From Basidiobolus meristosporus CBS 931.73 (Eukaryota > Basidiobolomycota > Basidiobolomycetes > Basidiobolales > Basidiobolaceae): 42,839 nucleotides of DNA. Location: positions 1 through 42,839 of the forward strand of contig MCFE01000712.1 of the NCBI GenBank assembly GCA_002104905.1, read 5' to 3'. Below, in pieces: positions 16,960 to 42,839 of the stretch (within the stretch, counting starts at the first letter, position 1; each line of letters starts with the position of its first letter). The translations under genes and the position numbers were made by a program. The notes under the pieces were generated by a model that was not told the DNA's origin, ran no database searches, and saw only the letters and a list, made by a program, of their open reading frames with translations.

Positions 16960-19582
16960 ATGAAATTCTCTTCTGCCAAACTTTTGTTCGTCCTCTCCGG
17001 TGTTGCCGCCATCAATGCTGCCGTCTATGATACCGGCGCCAATGGCAACGGTGGTGGATCCGGTGGTAACGGCGGCGGCCTCTCTGCCTATGATACCAAG
17101 GATCATTCTGGTTTGGGCGGCGGAAGCGGTGGCAATGGTGGAGGTAATGGTGGAAATGGAGGAGGAGCTGGTGGTTATGGACCAGGCAATGGAGGAGGAG
17201 CTGGTGGTAATGGTGGTGGTGCTGGAGCTTATGATACCGGTTCCGGCGGCAACGGAGGAGGATCCGGCGGCAATGGTGGCGGTTCAGGAGGCAATGGCGG
17301 TGGCGCAGGAGGATATGGACCAGGAGGTGGTGCTGGTGGCAACGGCGGAGGATCCGGCGGCAACGGCGGTGGTGCCGGGGCCTATGACACCGGTTCTGGC
17401 GGCAACGGCGGCGGATCTGGTGGTAACGGTGGAGGTTCAGGAGGCAATGGAGGAGGTGCCGGAGGATATGGACCAGGAGGTGGATCTGGTGGTAACGGTG
17501 GAGGATCTGGCGGCAATGGCGGTGGTGCTGGAGGATATGACACCGGCTCTGGCGGTAATGGTGGAGGATCAGGTGGAAACGGCGGCGGATCTGGTGGTAA
17601 CGGTGGTGGTGCTGGAGAATACGGCACCGGCTCTGGTGGCAATGGCGGAGGATCCGGTGGCAATGGTGGAGGATCTGGCGGAAACGGCGGCGGATCTGGT
17701 GGTAACGGTGGTGGTGCTGGAGCATACGACACCGGCTCTGGTGGCAATGGCGGCGGATCTGGTGGTAACGGTGGAGGTTCAGGAGGCAATGGTGGTGGTG
17801 CCGGAGGATATGGACCAGGAGGTGGTGCTGGTGGAAACGGCGGAGGATCCGGTGGTAATGGAGGCGGTGCTGGAGCATACGACACCGGCTCTGGTGGCAA
17901 TGGCGGCGGATCTGGCGGTAACGGTGGAGGTTCAGGAGGCAATGGTGGTGGTGCCGGAGGATATGGACCAGGAGGTGGTGCTGGTGGCAACGGCGGAGGA
18001 TCCGGCGGCAACGGTGGAGGTGCTGGAGGATACGACACCGGCTCTGGCGGCAATGGTGGCGGATCTGGCGGTAACGGTGGAGGTTCAGGAGGCAATGGTG
18101 GTGGTGCCGGAGGATATGGACCAGGAGGTGGTGCTGGTGGCAACGGCGGAGGATCCGGCGGCAACGGTGGTGGTGCTGGAGGATACGACACCGGCTCTGG
18201 AGGCAATGGCGGAGGATCTGGTGGAAACGGTGGAGGATCTGGTGGCAATGGTGGTGGTGCAGGTGCTTACGACACTGGATCTGGCGGCAACGGCGGCGGT
18301 TCCGGTGGTAATGGTGGTGGTGCCGGAGGAAATGGCGGAGGATCCGGCGGTAACGGTGGTGGTGCCGGAGCATATGATACCGGCTCTGGCGGCAATGGCG
18401 GAGGATCTGGTGGTAACGGTGGTGGTTCAGGAGGCAACGGAGGCGGTGCTGGCGGATATGGACCAGGAGGTGGTGCTGGCGGTAATGGTGGAGGATCTGG
18501 CGGCAATGGTGGTGGTGCTGGAAGTTACGATACCGGCTCTGGCGGTAACGGCGGAGGATCCGGTGGAAACGGCGGTGGTTCAGGAGGTAATGGCGGTGGT
18601 GCCGGAGGATATGGACCAGGAGGTGGTGCTGGTGGCAATGGTGGAGGATCTGGCGGTAACGGCGGTGGCTCTGGAGCATACGATACCGGCTCTGGCGGTA
18701 ATGGTGGTGGCTCAGGAGGCAATGGCGGAGGTGCCGGAGGATATGGACCAGGTGGAGGGGCTGGTGGAAACGGTGGAGGATCCGGCGGCAACGGTGGTGG
18801 TGCTGGAGGATACGATACCGGCTCTGGAGGTAACGGTGGAGGATCTGGTGGTAACGGTGGTGGATGCTGGCGGCAATGGTGGAGGCTCAGGAGGCAATGG
18901 CGGTGGTGCCGGAGGATATGGACCAGGAGGCGGTGCTGGTGGCAACGGCGGCGGTAACGGTGGTGGTGCTGGAGGATACGATACTGGCTCAGGCGGTAAT
19001 GGCGGAGGATCCGGTGGCAATGGCGGCGGTTCGGGAGGTAACGGCGGTGGTGCCGGTGGATATGGACCAGGAGGTGGTGTTGGTGGCAATGGTGGAGGAT
19101 CCGGCGGTAACGGCGGTGGCTCTGGAGCATACGACACTGGCTCTGGCGGTAATGGCGGCGGATCTGGCGGTAACGGTGGCGGTTCAGGAGGCAATGGTGG
19201 AGGTGCCGGAGGATATGGACCAGGAGGCGGTGCTGGTGGCAACGGCGGAGGATCCGGTGGCAACGGCGGCGGTGCTGGAGCATATGACACCGGCTCTGGC
19301 GGTAATGGCGGAGGATCCGGTGGTAATGGTGGTGGTGCCGGAGGAAATGGCGGAGGATCCGGCGGCAACGGTGGTGGTGCTGGAGGATACGACACTGGCT
19401 CTGGCGGTAATGGCGGCGGATCTGGCGGTAACGGTGGTGGTTCAGGAGGTAATGGCGGTGGTGCCGGAGGATATGGACCAGGAGGTGGTGCTGGAGGCAA
19501 TGGTGGTGGTGCTGGCGGCAATGGTGGCGGATCTGGCGGCAATGGTGGTTATGATACATCTGACCATGCCGGAGCTTACTAA
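16960..19582 (+). CDS. Secreted glycine-rich tandem-repeat protein, with one frameshift
   Basis: The ATG at 16960 starts a clear signal peptide (MKFSSAKLLFVLSGVAAINA) followed by a huge Gly/Asn/Ser repeat. The basic unit is the heptad GGNGGGS or GGNGGGA. Heptads are grouped into a higher-order unit of about 51 aa (153 nt) with AYDTGS and GGYGPGGGA as spacers, repeated roughly 16 times. At 18864-18865 one extra base (GGAT-G-CTGGC) shifts the frame; reading in the original frame ends at 18957, whereas the repeat continues in the next frame to YDTSDHAGAY and a stop at 19580-19582. Third codon positions vary freely between repeats while residues are kept, so selection acts on the protein. No known family is recognised; a cell-wall, sheath or adhesive role is my inference. 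The shift may be an assembly error or a true lesion. Confidence 0.8.
17030..19560 (+). repeat. Coding minisatellite, 21-nt subunits in 153-nt higher-order units
   Basis: About 2.5 kb of in-frame tandem repeat encodes the glycine-rich domain. GGATCTGGCGGCAATGG-type blocks recur every 21 nt, with GGATATGGACCAGGAGG and TACGACACCGGCTCTGG blocks marking the 153-nt unit. Because stop codons are nearly absent in such GGN-rich DNA, several other frames on both strands are also open. Confidence 0.9.
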
Positions 19583-29106: not shown

Positions 29107-29162
29107 CCATCTTGCTGCCTTTACCAGACATCAACTGACTATCTCCGCAACGCATTTCCAAC

Positions 29163-30631
29163 ATGGCTTCCAACAGACAGCATCTTGAATTTGATGGTGA
29201 ATACCAAAATGGCTTGACCGGTAGAAGCAACCAACAGAACTACCCTCACTCTCGCTACGGACGTCAGTATGAGCAAGATGAGTATGACAACGAGTACCAA
29301 AGAGGAAGAAATAGTCAGCAAAACTACCCCGTTCTCGCTTGGGTCGTCAGTACGAGCATGATGAATATGAAAGAGGATTTGTAGGCAGGAACAGACAGCA
29401 GAACTATCCCCGTTCTCGCTTTGGCCGCCAATATGAGCAAGACGAACTTGACAATGAGTATGAGAGAGGATTAGCCGGAAGAAGTGGACAGGACAACTAC
29501 CCTCGTTCGCGCCTTGGACGCCAATATGAGCAAGACGAGCTTGACAACGAGTATGAGAGAGGGGTTTCTCGCAGAAATGGTCAGCGGAACTATCCTCGCT
29601 CTCGCTACGGACGCCAGTACGAGCAAGATGAGTATGACAACGAGTACCAACGAGGAAGAAATGGTCAGCAAAACTACCCCCGTTCTCGCTTGGGTCGTCA
29701 GTACGAGCATGATGAATATGAAAGAGGATTTGTAGGCAGGAACACACAGCAGAACTATCCTCGTTCTCGCTTTGGCCGCCAATATGAGCAAGACGAACTT
29801 GACAATGAGTACGAGAGAGGGGTTTCCCGCAGAAATGGTCAACAGAACTATCCTCACTCTCGCTACGGACGCCAGTATGACCAGGGTGAGTATGACAACG
29901 AGTATCAAGGAGGAAGAAATGGTCAGCAAAACTACCCCCGTTCTCGCTTGGGTCGTCAGTACGAGCATGATGAGTATGAAAGAGGATTTGTAGGCAGGAA
30001 CAGACAGCAGAACTATCCCCGTTCTCGCTTTGGCCGCCAATATGAGCAAGACGAACTTGACAATGAGTACGAGAGAGGGGTTTCCCGCAGAAATGGTCAA
30101 CAGAGCTATCCTCACTCTCGCTATGGACGCCAGTACGACCAGGGTGAGTATGACAACGAGTATCAAAGAGGAGGAAATAGCCAGCAAAACTACCCCCGTT
30201 CTCGCTTCGGTCGCCAATATGAGCAAGACGAACTTGACAACGAGTACGAGAGAGGTATTTCTCGTAGAAATGGACAGCAAGGCTACCCACGCTCTCGCTA
30301 TGGACGCCAATACGAGCAGGATGAGCAAAACAATGAGTACAGGAGAGGATTCGCAGGAAGAAATGGCCAACAGAACTACCCTCGTTCTCGCTTCGGTCGC
30401 CAACATGAGCTTGAAAACGAGTACGAGAGAGGAGTTTCTCGCAGAAATGGTCAAGAGAACTATCCTCGCTCTCGCTATGGACGTCAATATGAGCAAGATG
30501 AGCTTGACAATGAGTATGAGAGAGAGATTTCTCGCAGAAATGGCCAACAGAACTATCCTCGTTCCCGATTCGGTCGTCAGTACGAGCAAGGTGGCAATGG
30601 AAGAGGAATTTCTCGCAGAAATGAGTACTGA
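29163..30631 (+). pseudogene. Arg/Gln/Tyr/acidic tandem-repeat protein, paralogue 1 (one-base frameshift)
   Basis: ATG 29163 opens the same protein as the intact paralogue at 31726. After about 56 codons a C-run reads four C (29327-29330) where all other units have five, and the frame runs to a stop at 29382-29384. The next frame carries the rest of the repeats without interruption from about 29331 to the stop at 30629-30631. About 14 units of roughly 30 aa follow the pattern NGQQNYPRSRFGRQYEQDEL + DNEYERG. The protein is very hydrophilic, rich in Arg, Gln, Tyr, Asn and Asp/Glu, with no signal peptide, no membrane helix and almost no Lys, Cys or Trp. The single lesion may be recent or an assembly error. 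No family recognised. Confidence 0.75.
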
Positions 30632-31659
30632 AGCTCCTCCTACTATGTCTTAACACCTGGTGAACTTGACGTTTGTAAGGAATCATTCCTGAAAGGCTTC
30701 AGGTTTAAATAAAGGCAATGCATACTCAGGATATGAAGTTAATTAGATAGTGATTGGTAAAGGAAAGATGGGTTTTTTGAAATCAGCGCACGTTTGGCAT
30801 GCCAAAAACCACGGATCTTATAATGTTATGCTGCGGTTTGGATGACTTGCTATTCTCGGCATTTCAGAAATCTTGTGACAAAAATACTCCTATGACATGC
30901 ACAAGGATGAAATTAATGTGGTCTGTCTTTGCCCTTAGTCCATGGAGTAGGCGAGTGAGCTCTGAATCAAGCCACATCCATAAAGATTATTCAGGGTGTT
31001 GGTATGAGCTCTATCGTATTGGCTTATATATATGTAACTTGTACTTTTAAGTGACTAAGCAAGGCCCCAAGGTGCTATGTGCAAATCCTGAGCACTCGTG
31101 GCCAATATCGAATGTTTGGATTTCATTTCGAAAAACCACCCGATCATGGGATTGGCTTCGTCCGAAAATAAGGAGTTCATAAGTCTATTTTCACGCCGAA
31201 TACAAGGTGTTCCAGTGGGATATAAAAGTAAACCCCACTACTATGTCAACCATCCAATAAATATGATCCGTATTAACCTTTATTGAATTTCATGCTCGAA
31301 ACCTTGGAAATCCACTCATGATTTGCAGAGCGTGAAGTGTTTGCAAGTGAAGTAAAATTTTCACCCCATTACGAAGAAAGCAAACAACGATAAACCGATA
31401 ATTAACATCAAAATATGCCAATTATATGGGTGTGCTCATGAATAATAAGATGGTCGTTCAGAAGTCATGCCATAAACCAGATCTCCTCTCGCTGAAATTT
31501 CCTACTAGCCAAGCCACCATGTTCGTAATTGAGTGCACTACTCAATTGATTATTACGTGACAGCATTAGCTGTTGATTGGAAATTCTTCTTCAAAATGTC
31601 GCTGGTCAAGGTGGCTTAGATAGACTGCTTAACTACCTACCTCTAAGCCTCATTCTCGG
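30632..31659. other. Intergenic between the two repeat-protein paralogues
   Basis: The start holds the 3' UTR of paralogue 1 with AATAAA near 30709. The last 230 bp (from about 31440) is the duplicated promoter block. Nothing else is recognised. Confidence 0.5.
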
Positions 31660-31669
31660 TATAAAATAT
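31660..31669 (+). promoter_or_regulatory. TATA box of repeat-protein gene 2
   Basis: TATAAAATAT lies 57-66 bp upstream of the ATG at 31726, identical in position and context to paralogue 1. Confidence 0.7.
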
Positions 31670-31725
31670 CCATCTTGCAGCCTTTACCAGACATCAACTG
31701 ACTATCTCCGCAACGCATTTCCAAC

Positions 31726-32946
31726 ATGGCTTCCAACAGACAGCATCTTGAATTTGATGGTGAATACCAAAGTGGCTTGACCGGTAGAAGCAACCAACAG
31801 AACTACCCTCACTCTCGCTACGGACGTCAGTATGAGCAAGATGAGTATGACAACGAGTACCAAAGAGGAAGAAATAGTCAGCAAAACTACCCACGCTCTC
31901 GCTTTGGCCGCCAATATGAGCAAGACGAGTATGACAATGAGTACGAGAGAGGATTAGCCGGAAGAAGTGGACAGGACAACTACCCTCGTTCGCGCCTTGG
32001 ACGCCAATATGAGCAAGACGAGCTTGACAACGAGTATGAGAGAGGGGTTTCTCGCAGAAATGGTCAGCAGAACTACCCTCACTCTCGCTACGGACGCCAG
32101 TATGAGCAAGATGAGTATGACAACGAGTACCAAGGAGGAAGAAATAGTCGGCAAAACTACCCACGCTCTCGCTTTGGCCGCCAACATGAGCAAGGCGAGT
32201 ATGACAATGAGTATGAGAGAGGATTAGCCGGAAGAAGTGGACAAGACAGCTACCCTCGTTCTCGCTTTGGCCGCCAATATGAGCAAGACGAGTATGACAA
32301 CGAGTACCAACAAGGAAGAAATGGCCAGCCAAACTACCCACGTTCTCGCTTTGGTCGTCAGTATGAGGAGGATGAGTATGATGAGTATGAGAGAGGAGTT
32401 TCCCGCAGAAATGGTTCACAGAACTATCCTCGCTCTCGCTATGGACGCCAGTACGAGCAAGATGAGTATGACAACGAGTACCAACGAGGAAGAAATAGCC
32501 AGCAAAACTACCCCCGTTCTCGCTTGGGTCGTCAGTACGAGCATGATGAGTATGAAAGAGGATTTGTAGGCAGGAACAGACAGCAGAACTATCCCCGTTC
32601 TCGCTTCGGTCGCCAATATGAGCAAGACGAACTTGACAATGAGTACGAGAGAGGCATTTCTCGTAGAAATGGGCAGCAAGGCTACCCACGCTCTCGCTAT
32701 GGACGCCAATACGAGCAGGATGAGCAAAACAATGAGTACGAGAGAGGATTCGCAGGAAGAAATGGCCAACAGAACTACCCTCGTTCTCGCTATGGACGTC
32801 AATATGAGCAAGATGAGCTTGACAACGAGTATGAGAGAGAGGTTTCTCGCAGAAATGGCCAAGAGAACTATCCTCGTTCCCGATTCGGTCGTCAGTACGA
32901 GCAAGGTGGCAATGGGAGAGGAATTTCTCGCAGAAATGAGTACTGA
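31726..32946 (+). CDS. Arg/Gln/Tyr/acidic tandem-repeat protein, paralogue 2 (intact, 406 aa)
   Basis: The intact sister of the gene at 29163. It opens MASNRQHLEFDGEYQSGLTG and ends GRGISRRNEY. Between them are about 13 units of 28-31 aa built from NYPRSRFGRQYEQDEY, DNEYERG and a variable hinge (ISRRNGQ, LAGRSGQ, FVGRNRQ). Arg and acidic residues alternate with Tyr and Gln, a composition typical of disordered, sticky low-complexity proteins; self-assembly or phase separation is my inference. Promoter, start region and 3' end are nearly identical to paralogue 1 and several internal blocks match exactly, so recent tandem duplication or gene conversion is likely. No family recognised. Confidence 0.85.
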   Translation: MASNRQHLEFDGEYQSGLTGRSNQQNYPHSRYGRQYEQDEYDNEYQRGRNSQQNYPRSRFGRQYEQDEYDNEYERGLAGRSGQDNYPRSRLGRQYEQDELDNEYERGVSRRNGQQNYPHSRYGRQYEQDEYDNEYQGGRNSRQNYPRSRFGRQHEQGEYDNEYERGLAGRSGQDSYPRSRFGRQYEQDEYDNEYQQGRNGQPNYPRSRFGRQYEEDEYDEYERGVSRRNGSQNYPRSRYGRQYEQDEYDNEYQRGRNSQQNYPRSRLGRQYEHDEYERGFVGRNRQQNYPRSRFGRQYEQDELDNEYERGISRRNGQQGYPRSRYGRQYEQDEQNNEYERGFAGRNGQQNYPRSRYGRQYEQDELDNEYEREVSRRNGQENYPRSRFGRQYEQGGNGRGISRRNEY

Positions 32947-35772
32947 AGCTGCTCCTACTATGTCTTAACATCTGGTGAACTTAACACTTCTCAGGGATTT
33001 TTTCTGAAGTGCTTCAGATTTCAATAAAAAACAATTCATAGTTCCCTACGTGATTGTTTGTCAGTGGGTGGTTACTCAAAATGATTAGGTGAACGCAAGA
33101 TGAGCTTTTGATTTGGTGCATGTCCAGCATTGCCGTACACAACTGATCTGCAATGCAGCATCGAAGCATTTATGCCATTATTCTTGATTTAAGGAGATGT
33201 GCATCTAGTTGCCACAACTATTACATTGGCAGTTGATGTTAGGCCGTCCAAGATGCATATTGAATAATTGCTTTATGAGTGCAGTGGAGACTTACTACAG
33301 AGCCCACCTGACATTATTGATCTTTATGCTAGCACCTAATTTTCTTTGGGTGCAATCATTAGGTTGGTCACTGCTACTGGAGTGCCCAAAGAAAAAAAGG
33401 TTAGCAATGTGCACCCAGAATATTGCATAATATCAGCATAATGCCAAGTTCTCTATATTGCAAATAGCAAAATGTTAGACTCCTGCTATATGGCAGAAAT
33501 AATGACACTTTGTCTAAGAAGAGGCTAGAATGTACCATATTAATAAGCCAAGTTTGGTAATAAGTTACTTGCTAATTTTACAATCATTTACAACTAAAAA
33601 TATGAAGGTATATTGCCATCACAATATCAGTAGAATATTAGTAAATCATCAAATGAGTTTTACATAAGGCATTTTCTTAGGGGCACAAATCACTATGGAT
33701 CCAAGAAATTAATTCTTTGCAAGATTTACTTTTTAAATCATGCATTGCAAGGCCAAGTTAGAGCTTTGTCAAAATCCAGAAAGTACAGGTAGCCAGGATG
33801 AGCTTGGACTTTGCTGTTCTCAAAGGTCCTCAATATCTAGTCAAAAAGAAAGATGTAGGAAAGCTGCTTACTAATTGTTCTGCATCAACATTTAAAACTT
33901 AGCCAATATTACTCCATCAGAAAATCTAGTACCCTTACTGATTTTCCCTAACCCAATCATAGCTGATCCCAGTTATAGTTTATTTTATCTCTTCTCAGAA
34001 TCTATCCTTAGCTGTCACACCTGATCAATTCTCATCTGGCCATTATGTTATCAATTTATCTGCCAAGCCTTCCCAGGTGAATAGTCATCTGAGATCTATA
34101 CAACAACTTAGCAGTTGCCAAGACATCAGCTGATCAATAATGCAATTTTCATTTATCTTATGCACCTATCAGCACTCCAACAAATTTCAATTAGTTCAGT
34201 CACCTGATGCTAACTAATTCAACTAGATCAAAAAAGTATAAATAAAGTTTACCAAACCTTTTGGTTTAGTGTGTTTCTCAACAAATTAAGATTACGTATC
34301 AGCAAAATTAAGAATTCAACAATTGCATTCTAGTTTCTACCCAAGCCTTGCATATCTAGTACTTACAAGAACACCAAGCCTAGCCTACATAACAAACAAA
34401 CTTTATTGCCCTAAAGCCAAACCCAGCTATTTAGAACACCAATACTAGACCAGAACCTCTCTGCTAATATTTCTGCCACTCTCTGACAATTCTAAAATTC
34501 TGCACTTGACTGTTAGAAAGGTTTAGTTGAGTTTTTGTAACTGCTCTAACACATCTAGTACAATATTTTTCAAAAATTGTATAAAAGTATTCCATTGTCC
34601 CTTTGGTTCAGTTAAACCCTTCAAGAGCTTTATTACACTTTTCTCTTGGATACAACATATACAAGAAAACTACCACTAGTATACCAGCTGAAAATCAGCT
34701 GAAAATCAGATGAATCCCATGTTTGAGATTTTTCATAAGGCAAACTTAGAATAAGATCCTTGTGGGTTTAAACTATCTGTCACTTGACTCAAAATGACAT
34801 TATGCTAGCACTTTGTACTTGAATTGCTTATTATTTGGGAGCTCCTACCTAGAGCAAATCAGCAGGGATGTGATACCTCGGGTGTGCAAAAGGTGTTTCA
34901 GAGTGTCATAATCAAGAGATATATCACACAAATAGGAAAATAAACCTGCAACTGGCTGCATATCCCTGTGTATACAAGTGGAATTTGTAATAAGTTGTTG
35001 GTAACAAACTATCCAGTGCTATGCACTCAGCTGTGATTTACATTTGATTATTCATATGCTCAAATAAAACAGGATTGGAGTATTTCATGGCCTTCATAAA
35101 GACTTGTAGTATGTTAAGGCACACTAATTATCATTTTACTCAGCAACAAATATTTGCATCCACATCAAGAAGAGGTATGCTTGGTACAAAAACCATAGAC
35201 TCCAAATTACAATCTGATAAGACATATGGTGTCTAGAGTGCTCCATTGGGCAATGTATAGTCAGTAATAGAACATTCCATATGCACAAAGGATGGGAATA
35301 ATTTCCCATCTTTGCTGGAAGTTTCATCACAAACCCTGGTTGCTTTGTGCATGACTTATGGTTACAAACAAAAATTCTTGTTACCAATTATCTTGATTTT
35401 TGTCTTAAACGGAATAGCGTCTACTCAGCCAAACAATGGTGTTGGTGGGCACAGTAACTAATTGATTAGGGATCTTTTGAAGGCATGTATGTGTCAAAGT
35501 TGTACATACATTAGATTTGTACCTTGCTAGAAATGATAAGACAATTTACCCTCACATCATGTTTGACTTTGAGTTCATTGTGGATTCATATGGTAGAGAT
35601 CAAAGTTGAAGTACATATTCTAGGCAATTCATTCCACATCTAGAATAATCTTCACATTTATTTGTATAGGCATAAATCACACACAACTTTGCCATCACAT
35701 TATCATTATCAGCAATACTTGCATAGTGCTATGTGACATGTACTTAATGTCCAATTTGAGAAGTTACCAACC
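32947..35772. other. AT-rich, nearly CpG-free noncoding stretch
   Basis: No gene, LTR pair or RNA gene can be supported. Between 33246 and 34879 I find only one CpG (34295), far below expectation. Two promoter-like spots, GTATAAATAAAG (about 34236) followed by CCTTTTGGTTTAG and GTATAAAAGTATT (about 34579) followed by CCTTTGGTTCAG, may be remnants of related LTRs. A composition break lies close to the end of repeat-protein gene 2, marking entry into subtelomeric, repeat-type DNA. Confidence 0.55.
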
Positions 35773-36024: not shown

Positions 36025-36130
36025 GCCACAAGCTTCTATCTCTAGGCAAAAAAGCTTACAATACTGGACAACCTATCCAGTATGCAAAAAATGAACCCAG
36101 GAAGCCTCTACAAAACGGTGAAAATTACCT

Positions 36131-37163
36131 CATGCTGTCATTATTGGAGGTGGTGTCTCTGGTCTTACTACCACTTGGGCTTTAAGAAGCTCTGGGTGTA
36201 AAGTAACTGTTCTAGCAAAGCAGTATGCCCAGCCCAGAGCTCATGGCAATGAGATTGTATCCAAGATTGCAGGTGCTTTGTGGGAGTGGCCTCCAGCAGT
36301 ATGTGGCTCCAATGGGAAGGATACTAAGGAGCAACTTGAAGACCTCAAGACATGGAGCCAAGTATTATATATACAGCTCAAGAATATTGCCAATAGATAT
36401 GGTGCTAAAGAGACAGGCATCCGTAAGCGCATGTTGTGCTTCTTGTTTGATTGAAAGCTTGGGCTAGATGGGCTGCAGAAGAAGCATGAAACCAAAAGTG
36501 TGTGTGAGGATTTCAATGATGATCTTTCACATCTGATTGAAAAGTACAGGATCAACACAAATTTGGAGAAGAAAGGCTACAATATTGTTGATGGGTATGA
36601 GCATCTATCATATGTGGTTGACCCTGGAAATTACCTTCACTGACTAAGGAGGCAGGTTGAAGATATGGGGGTTGTGCTTCAGCACGGAGTAGTGGAGGAC
36701 ACACTCTACAAGGAGATACCCTATCTGCTGAAACAGTTCAAAGCAGACATTGTCAACCAAAGAAAAGAAGCTCAAGGCTGAGGAAGGAAGGTTCAAATTC
36801 ATTGTCCCTAGGAATGACAACATCCTTATCCTTGGTGGTTACGCCCAAATGGGACAAGAGGCACTTGAATGGGATGAGGAGAATGGGATGATGAGCACTG
36901 GATATCTGGAAAGAATGAGAGCTGGATGTGTCAATCTTTATCCCAATTTAGCTGCTGAATTCACCAATTATTATTATTGTGCAGGAATTTGGCCATTCTG
37001 TGATGAGCCTTGTGTAGGCCAGGATGAATTGAATCCTAGATTATTCCACAACTACGGTCATGGTGGATCAGGCTTTACTCTTTCCTATGCGTGTGCACTA
37101 GACACTTGCCAAATTGTCAAGAGCAACTTCAAAACTGAATTCAGACCAACCAGCAACCTCTAG
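36131..37163 (+). pseudogene. D-amino-acid / D-aspartate oxidase-like flavoenzyme, decayed
   Basis: The frame from 36131 reads HAVIIGGGVSGLTTTWALRSSG, the N-terminal FAD-binding GxGxxG fold of this family. It is broken by TGA at 36452-36454 and again at 36641-36643; the second replaces what is usually Trp in a YLxWL motif. Near 36750 the frame changes and a central segment seems missing. The C-terminal part (to 37163) keeps DNILILGGYAQ and HNYGHGGSGFTLSYACA, the signature His-Gly-rich motif of D-amino-acid oxidases. The enzyme family oxidatively deaminates D-amino acids in peroxisomes. This copy is dead and, like its surroundings, CpG-poor. Confidence 0.8.
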
Positions 37164-37617: not shown

Positions 37618-37633
37618 TTTAGGGTGAGGGGGG
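37618..37633 (+). repeat. Internal telomeric remnant 1
   Basis: TTTAGGGTGAGGGGGG, a degenerate TTAGGG unit in telomere orientation, sits directly at the 3' end of the SINE-like element. It probably marks a former chromosome end. Confidence 0.6.
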
Positions 37634-37640
37634 AGGAAAG

Positions 37641-37654
37641 TCACCAAGTGGTGA
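37641..37654 (-). promoter_or_regulatory. 3' terminal hairpin of the SINE-like element
   Basis: TCACCAAGTGGTGA folds into a 5-6 bp stem. It lies at the 3' end of the element just before the C-rich junction with telomeric repeats and is shared by the stub at 40166-40179, LINE B and LINE A. Confidence 0.75.
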
Positions 37655-37710
37655 AATCTTTATTTACTTATGACAAGTATCTAAAGAAGCCAAGTTAATA
37701 TGAAGTAATT

Positions 37711-37829
37711 CCTAGAAAGCTAGGTCTGAGAGATATCTTCCTGGTAAGCCAGGTCTGAGAGTTGAGAAGCTGAGTGGTACTATATTTCCTAGTTAACTAG
37801 GTCTGAGAGAGGTTTCCTGGAAAGCCAGG
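37711..37829. repeat. Array of four covarying 14-nt hairpins in the SINE body
   Basis: Four 5-bp stems with 4-nt loops: CCTAG-AAAG-CTAGG (37711-37724), CCTGG-TAAG-CCAGG (37740-37753), CCTAG-TTAA-CTAGG (37788-37801), CCTGG-AAAG-CCAGG (37816-37829). Each is followed by TCTGAGA or CCTGAGA. The stem A-T pair alternates with a G-C pair by compensatory change. Hairpins 1-2 and 3-4 are spaced 28-29 nt apart, so the array may be a duplicated pair. Confidence 0.75.
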
Positions 37830-38089
37830 CCTGAGAAGTGAGAATCTGAATATATCTGAGCTAAGTTATATACTGGTTTGCGGTAGCTGAATTGTGGCCG
37901 GAATGGCCAGTAGACTGGGGGAACTGAGTGGAATATCTGGGCAATCACTGGCCAAATTTACTAAGCAAATCTGGCCAATTAGCATTTCAAGGATTTCAGC
38001 CAATCAGAGCCTTTACTTTGCGCAATAGTTCATCAAGCCATCTCCCAATGAGCACACATCAATTTATTAATCAAATTTTGCTGGATCCA

Positions 38090-38144
38090 GGATTTGAACC
38101 CACAACCATGGGTATGGAAGGGTTAGGGATAACCACAAGGCTAA
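38090..38144 (-). promoter_or_regulatory. Putative internal Pol III promoter (A and B boxes) of the SINE-like element
   Basis: B box GGGTTCAAATCC fits the GGTTCRANYCC consensus. A box TAGCCTTGTGG fits TRGYNNARNNGG with one mismatch. The gap between them is about 28 nt, as in tRNA genes. The acceptor stem cannot be formed, so this is not an intact tRNA gene. Confidence 0.6.
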
Positions 38145-38153
38145 GTGTTCTTG

Positions 38154-38188
38154 GTTGGGTTAGGGGGGAGGAAAGGGTTAGGGGAGGG
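38154..38188 (+). repeat. Internal telomeric tract 2, possibly with an ultra-short stub
   Basis: The sequence TTGGGTTAGGGGGGAGG, then AAAGGGTTAGGGGAGGG, separates the SINE from LINE B. The doubled TTAGGGG(GG)AGG(G)AAA pattern suggests that the last dozen bases of another element (minus strand TTTCCTCCCCCC) are embedded between two telomeric units. Confidence 0.6.
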
Positions 38189-40139
38189 AAAGTCACCAAG
38201 TTGGTGAAATCTTTATTTGAGTTAAGAACTAATCTAAGTACAAATAAAGAAGCCAATTAAGAGGTCTAGAACCTCTCTAATAAGTAATCTAATTTATGTT
38301 TTGTTTCATCTCTAATGTTTGTTTCAATAAAGTGAAGCTCATCAGAGGTAAATATAAAATTCAAGGGTTTTGGGGGAAGTACAAATTGTAGATGTTTCTG
38401 ATCAATATAATCCAAGACTGGAACCCAGCCTGGAATTAGGTGTAGTAGGAAAGGTGTGTGGACTTGTAAGTAGCTCTGCCACATAGATCTTAGATGGTCC
38501 TGAGCCAGTAGTCTTCGTTTCTCAGCTTTTTGAAGTTTTGAAGCAAGCTCTGTTACTACAGCAGAGCCAACCAGGGTGTGCCAGCAAGAAGATTTCAGGG
38601 AGGAGTTAGATTGAAGCCATTGTTTGATGGAGGGGTTATGTGATTTCTGAAGTTTGACCAGGAAGGAAGCACGGAGATAGATCATTTGGATTTGGTATGG
38701 GTAGAACCCAAAAACTCCATTAGTTGCATGGATATAAGGAGATACTGGAAGATAAGGTACCAAGGATCTGATACACTGATGGAGAAATTTATCCAGGCGG
38801 TGAAGTTCTCTGGAGGTTAGGGGTATAATGTGGAGACCAAATTCAAGTACCGGCAGTACATACTGCTTCAGAAGTATAGGGATCTTTTGAATTGGAGTGT
38901 CTGGAGTGACTACTACCAGAAGCTTTTTGAGAGCCTGTTGGGCAAGACGGATCCTATTATTCAGGTGGAGCTTTGAGTCAATCCCATGTTGACAAAATGG
39001 CAGACCTAGATATATTGCAGTTTGTTGTGGCAGAATGCTAGTGTTCTGAATAGTTGAAGTGCACCCAATTGGGACTGTCTTGGAAATTGAGAGTGAGAGG
39101 TTGTTGGCAGCCAAGTACTTCTCAATGATGGCAGTGTCTGCTATGGGATTAGGAGTAGCAATCTTGATATCATCTGCATAGAGAGTTAGTAGTGGATAGG
39201 GAGAGTCTGGTGAGGGGCCTTTTGGAAATAAAGGAAAGTCGTGTAGGAATATCACAAATAGTAAGGGACCTAGTACAGATCCTTGGACTACTCCATTTGG
39301 AACCTCATAAGTCTCTGATGTACAACTTGGATGCAAAATTTTGGCTGAGTTCTCACAAAATAGAGAACGTACAAGAAGGGTCATTGGTAGTGTGGTAACT
39401 GCTAATAGCTTTCTCCAAAGCAGAGCTCTGTCCACAGAGTCAAAGGCTTTAGTAATGTCAAACAGAATGGTTGGCAATGAGAATTGAAGTGAATGATCAT
39501 CGCTTAGCACTACAGCCATATCCAAGGAGAGTTTGGGCAAGAATCCAAACTGGGAAGGATGGAATGGATATAGTTGAGATTGCAAGGATCTTACTATTAT
39601 AAGCTCAAATATTTTCCGGCAGGTTGGTAGGAGCAAAACTGGCCGGTAAGAACCTGGGAGTGAGTGTTTCCCCTTCCCTTTGTATAAGGGTATTACATTT
39701 GCCTGTGACCAGGCCTTTGGGGTAGTCAATTGTTGGGCACAGATAGAGTAGAATGGGAGAAGTAAGTGACTCATTTTGGAGTAGCACACCCGGAGTAGAT
39801 TGTAGGTAATCAAGTCATGTCCAGGTGCAGTATTTGCAGGAAGCTTCTTTAAAATTTTCTCCAGAAGCTTTGCTGAAGCCAAAATTGGAGATGTTGGACT
39901 GCTAGATATGTTACCAGTATGGTAGAAAGGAGGAGTGGAATGCACGGTTGAATCAAAGAATATAGGGGCCAGTTTGTCTGGTGATGGTATACTCCTTGCT
40001 TGGGGTCTCATGGCTTTGTATACTCTTGATATAGACCTTGTGGTGGCATTCATATTTACTAAGGGCAAGGTATCCATGATATGAGCCCATAATCTAGTAT
40101 GCTCAGTGATCTGTAGTGACTTGGAGTAGGAGATTGCGC
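38189..40139 (-). mobile_element. LINE B: 5'-truncated non-LTR retrotransposon in telomeric repeats
   Basis: Minus-strand element whose 3' end faces the centromere and whose 5' end abuts telomeric repeats at 40140. It holds the reverse transcriptase frame (38266-40139) and a 3' tail of about 75 nt with TTGGCTTCTTT, AAATAAAG and the hairpin TCACCAAGTTGGTGA (38193-38207). Compared with LINE A it lacks about the first 170 codons, including any endonuclease part. Its protein is roughly half identical to LINE A by eye, so the two are distinct families using the same target and tail. Confidence 0.88.
38266..40139 (-). pseudogene. LINE B reverse transcriptase ORF (5'-truncated)
   Basis: The frame covers a region upstream of RT, the RT palm/fingers (PLYKGKGKHS, GSYRPVLLLP, DITKAFDSVD, PNGVVQGSVLGPLLF, YADD) and the thumb/C-terminal region (FGFYPYQIQMIYLRASF), ending at TAG 38266-38268. 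All RT catalytic Asp residues visible are intact and there is no internal stop. No native start exists: the frame runs on past 40139 through telomeric bases (read as Pro-Asn-Pro) and into the tail of the next element, beginning only at a TTG at 40209. The first in-frame ATG lies some 45 codons in. No endonuclease, zinc knuckle or RNase H is seen. Confidence 0.85.
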
Positions 40140-40159
40140 TTAGGGTAGGGTTAGGGGGA
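40140..40159 (+). repeat. Internal telomeric tract 3
   Basis: TTAGGGTAGGGTTAGGGGG lies between the 5' end of LINE B and the 3' hairpin stub. Confidence 0.8.
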
Positions 40160-40187
40160 GGAAAGTCACCAAGTGGTGAAATCTTTA
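40160..40187 (-). mobile_element. 28-bp stub: only the 3' hairpin end of a telomeric retroelement
   Basis: GAAAGTCACCAAGTGGTGAAATCTTTA matches the last bases of the SINE tail exactly and is flanked on both sides by TTAGGG-type bases (40140-40159 and 40186-40197). It is an extremely 5'-truncated insertion. The left portion of its 5' junction shares TTTA/TAAA with telomeric sequence, suggesting microhomology joining. Confidence 0.75.
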
Positions 40188-40197
40188 GGGGGGGGGA
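40186..40197 (+). repeat. Internal telomeric tract 4
   Basis: TTAGGGGGGGGG, a single telomeric unit with an extended G-run, separates the stub from the 3' end of LINE A. Confidence 0.65.
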
Positions 40198-42618
40198 GAC
40201 AGTCACCAACAGGTGAAATCTTTATTTCAGTTGAAACAAAGAAGCCAGCGCTACTGTTGTAGCTTTGATACAAGAGTGTGTAGCTGAGGGGAATTAGTAG
40301 GTAAGTTAATAAGAAGTGATGATAGTTCTTCAGTGCTCAAGAGACTGTTCAGTGGGAAGGGGGGTAGCAAGAGAGGTAAGAATGACTTGTGAACAACATT
40401 AATGAGGGGAATGTGCTAAGGATTGATATTCATCATAAATGGAGTGTGCTGCTGCAGATATTGCTGCCAAAAGTCTGTCAAGTACTTCAGGTAGGCCAGC
40501 TTGGGTTTTTCTGACTGCAGAATAAATTCAGCAAACTTCTTGACTTCAGGATCTCCAAGAATAGTTCTCCAGCAGGAGCCAGGTGTTGTGTGGTGTGTTC
40601 TCTTCCAGGCCTTAATCAGTGGGTTGTTGCAGTTGTGAAGTCTGAGGTATAATCTGGTTCTAAGGTAGAGAAGTCTGATCTTATAGGGCATAAACCCAAA
40701 AGCACCAAGAATAGCATGTCTGTAGGGGCATTCAGGCAAATGAGGCACCAAGGAGGTAATGCACCATACTGCAAACTTGTCAAGCTTAGTGCAGTCTCTA
40801 GAAGTAAGAGAGAGAAGTGGTAAGCCAAATTCCAGGACAGGGAAGACAAACTGCTTGAGTAGAAGGAGGCAGCTGGGAGCTGAAGTTGTAGGAGGAGTAA
40901 CAGCCAGTAGCTTGTGGAGTGCCTGTCTTGCTAGGATAATTCTCTTCTTCAGGTGTGCTCCAGAGTCTAGTCCAGTAGGAAGGAAAGGAAAGCCAAGATA
41001 TGTAGCAGAAACCTGAGCAGGTAGAGTGGAGTTCTCCAAGTTGATGGGAGAGCCCAAAGGTACTGTCTTTGCAATGGAAAGCTGGAGATTATTCTTCTGC
41101 AGATACTGGCGGATGGTCTGGGAGTCTTGTTGCACATTGGAGGAGGATATTCTGATGTCATCAGCAAAGAGAGTAACCAGGCAGTCAGCTGAGAGTCTTG
41201 GGAAATCATTCAGGAAGATGGCAAACAGTATAGGACCAAGCACAGAGCCTTGAACCACTCCATTAGGAACTGAGAACACTGGTGATTGCTCACTTGGGTG
41301 CAGAATTCTTGCTTGTGGATCCAGAAACAGAGACCTGACAAGGAGGGTGAGAGAGGTACTGGAGAAGCATTGCAACTTGGACCAAAGCAGATTTCTGTCA
41401 ACTGAATCAAAGGCCTTAGTAATATCAAACAGAACTGAGGGATACTTGCACTGGAGAGAGTGATCTTGGCTAAGTATGACTGCATATTCCAAGGAGAGGC
41501 CAGGAACAAAGCCAAACTGTGCAGGATGAAACTTGAGGGAGTCAGAGTAGAGCTCCTGAGCAAGCAGAAGCTCAAACACCTTTCTGCAGGTGGGCAGCAG
41601 AGATATTGGCCTGTAGGAGCTAGGATCCAGGTGCTTTCCTTTACCCTTGTACAGTGGCAGAACATTTGCAAAGGACCATTCCTCAGGAGTAGAAAGCTGG
41701 GCTGAGCATTGCTGAAACAGTGGAAGCAGAAGTGCAGACATGGCCTTGGTACTAGTCTTCAGAAGCTCATAAGAGATTGTGTCCACACCTGGAGCAGTAG
41801 AGTTGGGAAGCCTCTTGAGCACATTATGAATTCTCCTTTGATCAAGTGCAAGTGGAATGGGCAGAGTCTTGAAGTCAGGATGAAAGCCAGGAGTTGAGTA
41901 CTGCTTTGTAGAGAAGAAGATGTTAGCCAGCTGCTCTGTTGAAGGTAACTTCCTGGAAGAGGGCCTCATTGCCCTGTAGAGTCTTGATACTGTTCTTGTT
42001 ATAGAGTTGGAAGATTGCAGAGGCAAGGAACTCATAATATGATCCCAGAGCTGAGTATGCAGAGTGTGGTGAATTGCCTTGGAGTGGTGTATTGCTGTCA
42101 GGAGGAGATTCTCTGTTTTTGGGTTAGGGAAACTCAGGTAGCTTTGTTGCAGGGCTGAAACAATGGATTCCCATTTTCTTGAGGTAACAGCAGTAGTCTT
42201 GCATGGCAGTGAGAGGGAGGCAGACACCAGAATCAGATGCTTCACAAAGAGCCAGGCATAGTTGAGATCATCTGGCAGAGAAAGTAGCAAACTGGCAAGC
42301 TTCAAGTAGTTCCCAAAGTCTTTCTTCTGATTCTTGGTAGCTTTGTGGGTGAGCACAGTAAGTTTTGACAGCTTCTTCTTCACAACTGGTTGCATAGAAA
42401 GGGACCAGGCTGGGTGGTCAGAGGCTCTCAAGGATCCTAGCTCAGCTCCAGAGAATTGCTTGACTTCATTCACAAAGTAGAGGGCAGCAGCAGAAGGGCA
42501 GATCCAGTCAACACATCTTTTCTCAGATTGAGCACCTAGTGCTAGCAGATGGCTTTCTCTCAGGAAGTTCAGTAGGAATGTAGACCTTGGCTTCATTCTT
42601 GCAGTCAGAGTAGTCTTG
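40198..42618 (-). mobile_element. LINE A: 5'-truncated APE-type non-LTR retrotransposon capped by the telomere
   Basis: Minus-strand element with its 3' tail at 40198-40250 (hairpin TCACC-AACA-GGTGA at 40203-40216, then ATCTTTATTT and AAAGAAGCC) and its 5' end fused directly to the terminal TTAGGG array at 42618/42619. The 3' UTR is about 215 nt. Truncation falls inside the APE endonuclease domain. As the outermost element it is the youngest insertion in the stack. Confidence 0.9.
40416..42618 (-). CDS. LINE A endonuclease-remnant / reverse transcriptase ORF (5'-truncated by the telomere)
   Basis: From the ATG at 42596 the frame gives 726 aa, but upstream it stays open straight into the telomere (read as Pro-Asn repeats), so the true start is lost. 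Residues 1-62 are the C-terminal end of an APE/exonuclease-endonuclease-phosphatase domain: a LLNFLRESHLLAL helix, CVDWI (28-32) and SDHP (59-62). The RT spans about residues 310-560: PLYKGKGKH, YRPISLLP, DITKAFDSVD (391-400), GVVQGSVLGP and FADD (477-480). The C-terminal part (FGFMPYKIRLLYLR) parallels LINE B; no zinc knuckle or RNase H is seen. There are no internal stops, so the element was active recently. Confidence 0.88.
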
Positions 42619-42684
42619 TTAGGGTTAGGGTTAGGGTTAGGGTTAGGGTTAGGGTTAGGGTTAGGGTTAGGGTTAGGGTTAGGG

Positions 42685-42725
<41 letters not shown>

Positions 42726-42839
42726 GGTTAGGGTTAGGGTTAGGGTTAGGGTTAGGGTTAGGGTTAGGGTTAGGGTTAGGGTTAGGGTTAGGGTTAGGGT
42801 TAGGGTTAGGGTTAGGGTTAGGGTTAGGGTTAGGGTTAG
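42619..42839 (+). repeat. Telomere, (TTAGGG)n
   Basis: 221 bases, almost 37 units, of TTAGGG run to the end of the window. One unit near 42703 is TTTAGGG. The G-rich strand runs 5' to 3' toward the edge, the orientation of a right-hand chromosome end. The array starts directly on the truncated 5' end of LINE A. Confidence 0.98.

What the first reader, a model, noticed from the sequence alone, without database searches (positions are those of the whole stretch)
37618..42839. Stack of nested non-LTR elements built into telomeric repeats at a chromosome end
Seen: four insertions (SINE-like, LINE B, a 28-bp stub, LINE A) lie in the same orientation, 3' end centromere-side and 5' end telomere-side, each separated from the next by one to three degenerate TTAGGG units, and the outermost is capped by about 37 perfect units. 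Known: HeT-A/TART/TAHRE, insect TRAS/SART, Zepp and MoTeR elements target telomeres. Inferred: serial insertion at successive chromosome ends followed by telomerase re-capping, in a fungus with a normal TTAGGG telomere. The combination of two diverged LINE families plus a SINE at one end looks undescribed to me.
Basis: partly seen in the sequence, partly recalled or inferred. Interest (0 to 1): 0.92.

Follow-up and report, generated by a model that had tools for sequence, protein, structure and literature searches.

The report
LINE/SINE stacks capping fungal chromosome ends
In this fungus many chromosome ends are built of jumping-gene copies stacked one on the next in the same direction and finished with an ordinary telomere, and the joints suggest that the copies are added directly onto broken or bare chromosome tips.

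Summary
Elements point 5' end outward: 58 of 61 LINE A copies scored face the nearer contig end, 59 lie within 10 kb of the end they face; LINE B type 49 of 51. LINE A has ORF1, an in-frame UGA-CUA, then ORF2 with APE-like endonuclease motifs and RT; the known fungal telomeric LINEs (MoTeR, FoTeR, Cnl1) are RLE/CRE types. A 0.53-kb SINE-like element shares the tail.

The joints change the mechanism. 136 of 167 parsed 3' joints hold at most 9 telomeric bases before the G-run, usually in phase TTA|GGG, against about 37 units in caps. Full-length SINE 5' ends are followed by one TTAGGG and a G-run 102 times, two units 6 times, three 2 times. Ten flanks break off inside dispersed DNA that runs on elsewhere but not beyond the joint. 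I infer serial 3'-end-primed reverse transcription onto short, bare or broken ends, then telomerase capping. A new variant of a known kind.

The parts
37618..37627 (+). degenerate telomeric unit at the innermost joint (TTTAGGG + TGA)
   Evidence: sequence
37628..38154 (-). SINE-like element, full length: 5' end CCAAGAACAC... at 38154, 3' tail with hairpin and C-run at 37628 onward; A/B-box-like motifs near the 5' end read by eye
   Evidence: tRNA origin not confirmed by ARAGORN or Rfam
38155..38180 (-). TTGGGTTA, a 12-nt tail stub (38163-38174), then GGGTTA
   Evidence: a like stub is capped by a long array at the end of contig C726 (L103)
38181..40141 (-). LINE B, 5'-truncated; ORF2 RT region in the open frame 38266-40221
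   Evidence: RVT_1 E 1.1e-19; 51% identical to LINE A ORF2 over 581 aa; among the P0006 matches
40140..40156 (+). TTAGGGTAGGGTTAGGG joint
40154..40187 (-). SINE-type tail stub; its own CTTTA provides the TTA of the next joint
40188..42617 (-). LINE A, 5'-truncated inside the endonuclease region; ORF2 fragment 40416-42617 (stops early compared with other copies)
   Evidence: RVT_1 E 3e-25; 60 further copies at 98-99% identity
42618..42839 (+). terminal TTAGGG array, 36.8 units, reaching the contig end
   Evidence: GTT shared with LINE A at the joint

Best explanation
These are chromosome-end-specific non-LTR retrotransposons: LINE families A and B with APE-like endonuclease motifs (further tail types hint at more families), and a SINE-like parasite that shares their 3' tail. 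Shown: one orientation, location at contig ends, a common tail with a small hairpin and a C-run, a usual joint phase TTA|GGG with mostly 2 repeats or fewer, frequent 5' truncation with short microhomology to the telomere unit, flanks that break off inside other dispersed DNA, and terminal caps of about 37 units. Inferred: the C-rich (and probably CCCUAA-ending) RNA 3' end pairs with the 3' end of a short, bare or broken chromosome tip, or with the 3' end of the cDNA just made; the LINE RT copies the RNA outward, so that the cDNA becomes the new G-strand; this can repeat at once, giving LINE/SINE chains with about one repeat per joint; telomerase then caps the last cDNA with a normal array. The elements live off chromosome ends and at the same time lengthen or heal them.
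For: Orientation and place: 58/61 and 59/61 LINE A; 49/51 LINE B type; of the first 100 tails listed (of 425), 94 had a known contig length, and the 41 on contigs over 100 kb all lie within 18.4 kb (median 4.7 kb) of the end their 5' side faces. Joints: 173 distinct tails, 167 parsed, 157 with TTA or TA before the G-run, 136 with at most 9 telomeric nt; terminal arrays 53-243 bp in 13 ends, 12 of them 170 bp or more. Full-length SINE 5' ends: one unit 102, two 6, three 2, four or more 21. 5' joints: overlap of 2 nt or more with the telomere phase in 34 of 63, against 19% in simulated joins. Ten flanks inside dispersed DNA (some read by eye as copia or gypsy) that runs on in another locus; on the outer side of the joint that continuation (937-1500 nt tested) was not found in 9, and in the tenth (L010:4994) the hits lie only on LINE/SINE tails and telomere repeats; outer side read to the contig end in 8 of 10, in part in 2. 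Telomerase domain PF12009 over cut-off. ORF2 copies: dN/dS-like ratios (crude count) 0.14-0.39 in 15 of 21 pairs, 0.5-0.84 in the 6 pairs with L012, 0.33 overall.
Against: No RNA 3' end has been seen, so the terminal CCCUAA of the transcript is a guess. ORF2 keeps endonuclease motifs, which would allow nicking at the telomere base instead of end priming. Copies are not independent: ends can be copied by recombination and the assembly may hold haplotypes, so counts such as 102:6:2 overstate the number of events. Two LINE A copies break the rule: C726 (LINE A + SINE stack, inverted, about 10.5 kb inside, one side fused to copia-like RNase H) and C217 (a short, indel-rich contig). 15 of 149 tolerant joint lengths exceed 15 nt, and two joints (L027, L097) have six to seven perfect units, so telomerase does sometimes act between additions. 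Only 61 of 1376 and 51 of 1279 candidate places were scored, so decayed interior copies could be missed.
Confidence: 0.68

Rival explanations
1. TRAS/MoTeR-like insertion: the element's endonuclease nicks the G-strand after GGG near the base of a normal telomere, target-primed reverse transcription follows, and the distal repeats remain as the cap.
For: ORF2 carries APE-like motifs: G-D-x-N, D and S-D-H invariant in 12 aligned proteins; P0006 just passes the Pfam cut-off for Exo_endo_phos_2, LINE A has E 3.4e-4 below it. The usual phase TTA|GGG suits a fixed nick. MoTeR and FoTeR show telomeric tracts on both sides (passages and sections).
Against: Nicks spread over about 37 units should leave a broad range of units; 102:6:2 for one, two, three units needs nicking almost always after the first unit. 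Ten flanks are broken non-telomeric DNA with mostly a unit or two at the joint. The E of the ETW motif is D in this family.
Confidence: 0.22
2. Survivorship: elements insert anywhere in the arrays, but interstitial tracts of three or more units break and are healed, so only joints with at most two units persist.
For: Reported for MoTeR: tracts of three or more TTAGGG can break often, one or two are stable (PMC7367193, passages seen). It would give a limit near two units, as seen.
Against: It predicts one and two units about equally; 102 against 6 genome-wide and 18 against 2 in the fetched loci (p about 4e-4) do not fit, unless copies of one joint inflate the first number.
Confidence: 0.13
3. 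Template jumping or cDNA concatemers: the LINE RT runs off the 5' end of one RNA and jumps onto the 3' end of the next, so that several elements are laid down in one event.
For: SINE to LINE A, SINE to SINE and SINE to other tail types share the same one-unit join; the interior stack of C726 keeps such a SINE-LINE A joint; template jumping is established for the R2 RT in vitro (PMC8857657, abstract and passages).
Against: Many elements are 5'-truncated and still joined, which run-off jumping does not explain; the same R2 paper suggests that jumping may not be needed in vivo.
Confidence: 0.3
4. Recombination (break-induced replication or D-loop growth) spread a few original stacks to many ends and multiplied units in tandem.
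For: SINE tandems with an even step of about 525-534 bp look like unit duplication; MoTeR arrays do this (PMC7367193, passages).
Against: It cannot by itself make the many different 5' truncations and flank combinations.
Confidence: 0.25

Closest known systems
MoTeR1/MoTeR2 of Magnaporthe oryzae and FoTeR of Fusarium oxysporum (CRE clade)
   Same: telomere-linked, 5' end outward, arrays with interstitial TTAGGG, truncated copies, VNTRs (FoTeR abstract), a second element sharing the 3' end (MoTeR2) (passages of PMC7367193; abstract and sections 18-19 of PMC12857005)
   Different: those group with SLACS/CRE/Cnl1 by RT and restriction-like endonuclease (section 18); here ORF2 has APE-like motifs before the RT and no RLE match, and the partner is a 0.53-kb element without a long ORF
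TRAS/SART of silkworm
   Same: APE-type endonuclease class and telomere-repeat association (recalled)
   Different: these sit inside arrays and end in poly(A) (recalled); here most joints hold 0.5-2 repeats and the tail is a hairpin plus C-run
HeT-A/TART/TAHRE of Drosophila
   Same: head-to-tail arrays, 3' end inward, addition to broken ends (recalled)
   Different: no telomerase there (abstract start of PMC11698117); here a telomerase domain and TTAGGG caps are present
Athena/Coprina Penelope-like elements
   Same: addition at chromosome ends with telomeric bases at the joint (recalled)
   Different: RT here is of non-LTR type; relative P0002 matches LINE-1 ORF2p best in the PDB, E 9e-16
Zepp of Chlorella and Cnl1 of Cryptococcus
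   Same: nested telomeric LINE clusters (recalled)
   Different: Cnl1 is grouped with CRE (PMC12857005 section 18); Zepp joint and tail type differ (recalled)

Membership tests
telomere-associated non-LTR retrotransposon (broad kind) | copies confined to chromosome ends | tested here: met
   59/61 LINE A within 10 kb; 40/40 LINE B type on contigs over 30 kb within 20 kb; scored candidates only
telomere-associated non-LTR retrotransposon (broad kind) | one orientation relative to the end | tested here: met
   58/61 and 49/51; exceptions C726, C217 and the 11-13 kb contigs C323, C318, C251
MoTeR/FoTeR (CRE clade) | restriction-like endonuclease | tested here: not met
   Pfam scan finds RVT_1 and weak APE-type domains only; absence in a domain scan, no usable structure
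MoTeR/FoTeR (CRE clade) | RT groups with CRE/SLACS | not tested
   no tree built; for P0002 LINE-1 ORF2p scores above R2
TRAS/SART | APE-type endonuclease | tested here: inconclusive
   motifs kept but E to D in one; LINE A below Pfam cut-off, P0006 just over it
TRAS/SART | insertion within long telomeric arrays (feature recalled) | tested here: not met
   median 6 telomeric nt before the G-run, 136/167 at most 9
HeT-A-type telomere maintenance | no telomerase; ends maintained by elements | tested here: not met
   TTAGGG arrays and PF12009
Penelope-like elements | Penelope-type RT | tested here: not met
   RVT_1 with non-LTR relatives
SINE | 3' tail shared with a partner LINE | tested here: met
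SINE | RNA polymerase III promoter / tRNA-derived head | tested here: inconclusive
   box-like motifs by eye; ARAGORN and Rfam found no tRNA there

The most novel reading that the evidence does not exclude
The LINE RNP is a second chromosome-end-healing enzyme working beside telomerase: it primes on any bare or broken 3' end through the telomere-like end of its RNA, adds LINE and SINE cDNAs one after another in chains without telomerase acting between them, and makes its ORF1-ORF2 protein by UGA-CUA stop-codon readthrough.
Probability: 0.35. Interest if true: 0.88.

Novelty: new variant of a known kind. Interest (0 to 1): 0.76.

Why it matters
It would be a fungus in which telomerase and at least two LINE families plus a SINE share the chromosome ends, an intermediate between ordinary telomerase telomeres and the Drosophila type. 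The hundreds of similar copies with readable joints make an old question testable by sequence: how a retrotransposon moves from inserting in telomeres to extending bare ends. It also shows recurrent loss and repair of ends in a fungus that lies far from the well-studied Dikarya.

Tried and rejected
Interior-insertion hypothesis: rejected for the copies scored; one interior stack (C726) and one odd contig (C217) remain unexplained.

Random insertion in terminal arrays: rejected by joint lengths.

The continuation was absent on the outer side in nine; in the tenth (L010:4994) the hits were tails and telomere repeats only. In C835 and C350 the outer side was read only in part.

tRNA origin of the SINE-like element: not confirmed. 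The only Rfam row, astro_FSE at E 0.91, is chance.

Covariation of the tail hairpin: 5 pairs, none with both sides changed, so no covariation support.

Fold of the endonuclease: AlphaFold2 on P0002 with 5 sequences gave mean pLDDT 41 and was not used; no fold search was run.

C726 as a clean insertion into one copia element: dropped, since the right flank proved to be another dispersed repeat.

Rows dropped: 6 of 173 tails could not be parsed; 4 of 55 LINE B-type matches were short second pieces and left out; 6 of 100 listed tails lay on contigs of unknown length when counted; 33 of 112 joints were left out of the second overlap count.
Full report
What is there. The last 5.2 kb of the window is a stack of three main elements and two short stubs, ending in a TTAGGG array that reaches the contig end. 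Two are LINE fragments with a non-LTR reverse transcriptase (RVT_1, E 3e-25 and 1.1e-19); their proteins are 51% identical over 581 aa. One is a 0.53-kb element without a long ORF. All are antisense on the + strand, so their 5' ends face the telomere. A like stub is capped by a long array at the end of C726 (L103): it looks like a cDNA that stopped after some ten bases and was then taken over by telomerase (inference).

Genome. The window is contig C994 of an 89.0-Mb assembly in 1311 contigs. A protein of Basidiobolus meristosporus CBS 931.73 (P0005) is a gene model across LINE B and LINE A pieces; the length given for its longest contig, 176,536, equals that of contig C1202 here, which also bears a LINE B-type match. 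I take the genome to be that strain. A telomerase RNA-binding domain was found over the Pfam cut-off in two neighbouring pieces on C880.

Place and orientation. TTAGGGx4 occurs 7428 times forward and 81 reverse: contigs are mostly laid with the telomere at the right. The tail pattern follows this, 397/28, with 0/0 for the reversed control; a LINE A tail 27-mer 598/42, control 0/0. For LINE A, 61 of 1376 candidate places were scored, 98-100% identical to the window copy. With contig lengths, the 5' end faces the nearer contig end in 58 of 61, and in 59 of 61 it lies within 10 kb of the end it faces; on contigs over 30 kb, 51 of 52. For the LINE B type, 55 matches from 1279 candidates (51 scored); I counted 51 and left out 4 short second pieces: 49 of 51 face the nearer end; on contigs over 30 kb 40 of 40 lie within 20 kb and 38 within 10 kb. 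Of the first 100 tails listed (of 425), 94 had a known contig length; 88 face the nearer end, the other 6 lie on contigs of 13-20 kb; on contigs over 100 kb all 41 lie within 18.4 kb, median 4.7 kb. A sample of ends chosen only by a T insertion in the array (20 matches on 18 contigs) lies at the right contig end in each case (lengths); of the 17 besides the window, by my reading LINE or SINE tail-family sequence stands directly against the array in 12, ORF1-like or VNTR sequence in 3, copia-like in 1 and another repeat in 1.

Exceptions. C726 has a LINE A + SINE stack in the inverse direction about 10.5 kb from its right end, with a partial telomere unit and copia-like RNase H on the 5' side and another dispersed repeat on the 3' side, and a normal capped stack at the right end. 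It may be an end fusion or a misassembly. C217 is a 13.8-kb contig with many small indels. C323, C318 and C251 are about 11-13 kb long, so the nearer end means little.

The elements. The longest LINE A copies in hand (L014, L024) span at least 4.4 kb: an ORF1 open frame of 523 aa, an in-frame TGA, then an ORF2 open frame of 922 aa in undamaged copies. Around the stop, 8 of 9 copies read TGACTA and one TGATTA; LINE B (one copy, L019) has the same TCTGCC-TGA-CTA-C, again in frame and with no ATG at the start of ORF2. UGA-CUA is a known leaky stop context, in fungi too (PMC4207609, seen in a listing); a readthrough function here is inference. ORF2 begins with weak matches to APE-type endonucleases (LINE A E 3.4e-4 and 0.011, below cut-off; relative P0006 just over it). 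In an alignment of 12 proteins GDxN, D and SDH are invariant, while the E of the ETW motif is D in this family. No RLE or RNase H domain was found. In the PDB the RT of relative P0002 is closest to LINE-1 ORF2p (E 9e-16), R2 weaker (2.5e-4). ORF2 copies show more silent than changing differences per site by a crude count: 15 of 21 pairs give ratios of 0.14-0.39, the 6 pairs with L012 0.5-0.84, all together 0.33. The 5' region of LINE A has repeats of about 100 bp (L014). The SINE-like element ends in the same tail type as the LINEs. Seven tails share a small hairpin, but with no covariation.

The joints. Of 173 distinct tails with enough upstream sequence, 167 could be parsed and 6 not. Before the G-run stands TTA in 140, TA in 17, A in 7 and other in 3; elsewhere in 20 loci TTA precedes a G-run in 153 of 1803. 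The telomere-like stretch before the G-run has a median of 6 nt; 136 are at most 9, 15 are 10-15, 16 are longer. Terminal arrays measured 53-243 bp in 13 ends, 12 of them 170 or more. Genome-wide, the full-length SINE 5' end is followed by one TTAGGG and more G 102 times, by two units 6 times, by three 2 times, and by four or more 21 times (exact patterns, so variants are not counted, and copied ends are counted more than once). In the fetched loci 35 distinct full-length ends gave 18 with one unit (in one of these, L103, a stub and then the cap follow), 2 with two, 1 with three, 4 with seven or more (one of these, L097, is followed by LINE A), 9 degenerate and 1 cut.

5' ends. In 63 truncated 5' joints the element and the telomere phase overlap by 2 nt or more in 34, against 19% in simulated joins. 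A second count with other copies as reference gave 39 of 79 usable of 112, but part of those are full SINE joints whose outer bases are shared and inflate the overlap.

Flanks. Of 161 distinct centromere-side flanks, 49 are LINE A, 27 SINE, 16 LINE B and 69 other, the last including 5' repeats and further element types. Among the others, ten that I followed (L096, L084, L106, L062, L094, L123, L011, L010:4994, L017:3636, L013:9207) lie in dispersed DNA, in part copia- or gypsy-like as read by eye from translations, that runs on without a break in another locus. I then read the outer side of each joint: to the contig end in eight, in part in two. The continuation, 937-1500 nt tested, is absent there in nine; in L010:4994 the hits are only tails and telomere repeats that the compared locus itself holds. 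C136 is the clearest: copia-like DNA breaks off, then a 79-bp SINE tail, an 83-bp LINE A tail and a 36-unit array follow. So the chromosome end was broken inside ordinary DNA, and the element was joined there, mostly with one or two repeats.

Reading. One orientation with the 3' end inward and cDNA on the G-strand is what reverse transcription primed by the chromosome's own 3' end must give; it is also what nicking of the G-strand gives. The joint lengths decide between them in my view: insertion at random in arrays of about 37 units would leave a flat range of unit numbers. The survivorship seen for MoTeR (tracts of three or more units break, PMC7367193, passages) would give a limit at two but equal ones and twos. 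What is left is a nick nearly always at the first unit, or direct addition to an end with at most a unit or two, or to the cDNA just made. I favour the last, at 0.68 for the whole statement; the step 'RNA ends in CCCUAA-type bases' is a guess, and a telomerase that adds one short tract before the LINE RT takes over would look the same. The rivals overlap with each other and with this reading, so their odds do not add up to one.

Known relatives. MoTeR and FoTeR are also telomeric, MoTeR with 5' ends outward, but belong with Cnl1 to the RLE-bearing CRE/SLACS group (PMC12857005, abstract and sections 18-19; PMC7367193, passages). TRAS/SART, HeT-A, Zepp, Athena are compared from recall. No paper on telomeric retrotransposons in Basidiobolus stood in the listed rows of searches (2 of 2, 7 of 9, 10 of 47 shown), and none on a telomere-specific LINE + SINE pair in those of 11, 47 and 83 (3 of 3, 15 of 459, 12 of 36 shown). 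These cover open PMC papers only, and I read listings, not the papers, apart from those named.

Limits.

Noticed in passing
L014, L024, L025, L028, L046, L047, L048 (LINE A) and L019 (LINE B), ORF1/ORF2 border: In-frame TGA-CTA between ORF1 and ORF2 in 8 of 9 LINE A copies and in the one LINE B copy seen, without an ATG at the ORF2 start: a stop-codon readthrough candidate.
   Followed up: partly
L029 (end of contig C202): A copia-like RNase H region (read by eye) ends in a G-rich tract (GAGTGGGAGTGGG) that is capped directly by TTAGGG repeats.
   Followed up: no
C726 (L048, L087, L103): An inverted LINE A + SINE stack inside the contig, fused to copia-like RNase H on one side, with a normal telomere stack at the right end.
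   Followed up: partly
L023:8939-9950; L032, L041, L042: Short telomeric elements with an ORF1-like coiled-coil protein, in L023 with a related tail and no RT, perhaps a MoTeR2-like partner.
   Followed up: partly
L039, L041, L022, L068, L073: Other end-linked repeats (GTGTAGGTGTTATAGTAAGGGCTAGG... and neighbours) that are neither LINE A, LINE B nor the SINE.
   Followed up: no
C1257: Telomere array at the right end and an outward-facing LINE A at the left end: perhaps a nearly whole chromosome of 173 kb.
   Followed up: no
window 36100-37163: Remains of a gene that looks like a D-amino-acid oxidase (read from the sequence, not searched).
   Followed up: no
window 17128-19549 and 29139-32980: Stretches with long internal repeats: a Gly/Asn-rich one and one of QQNYPRSRFGRQYEQDE units.
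   Followed up: no
window about 34090-34430: A dispersed repeat that recurs on other contigs, in part next to stacks (L010, L019, L025, L087).
   Followed up: no
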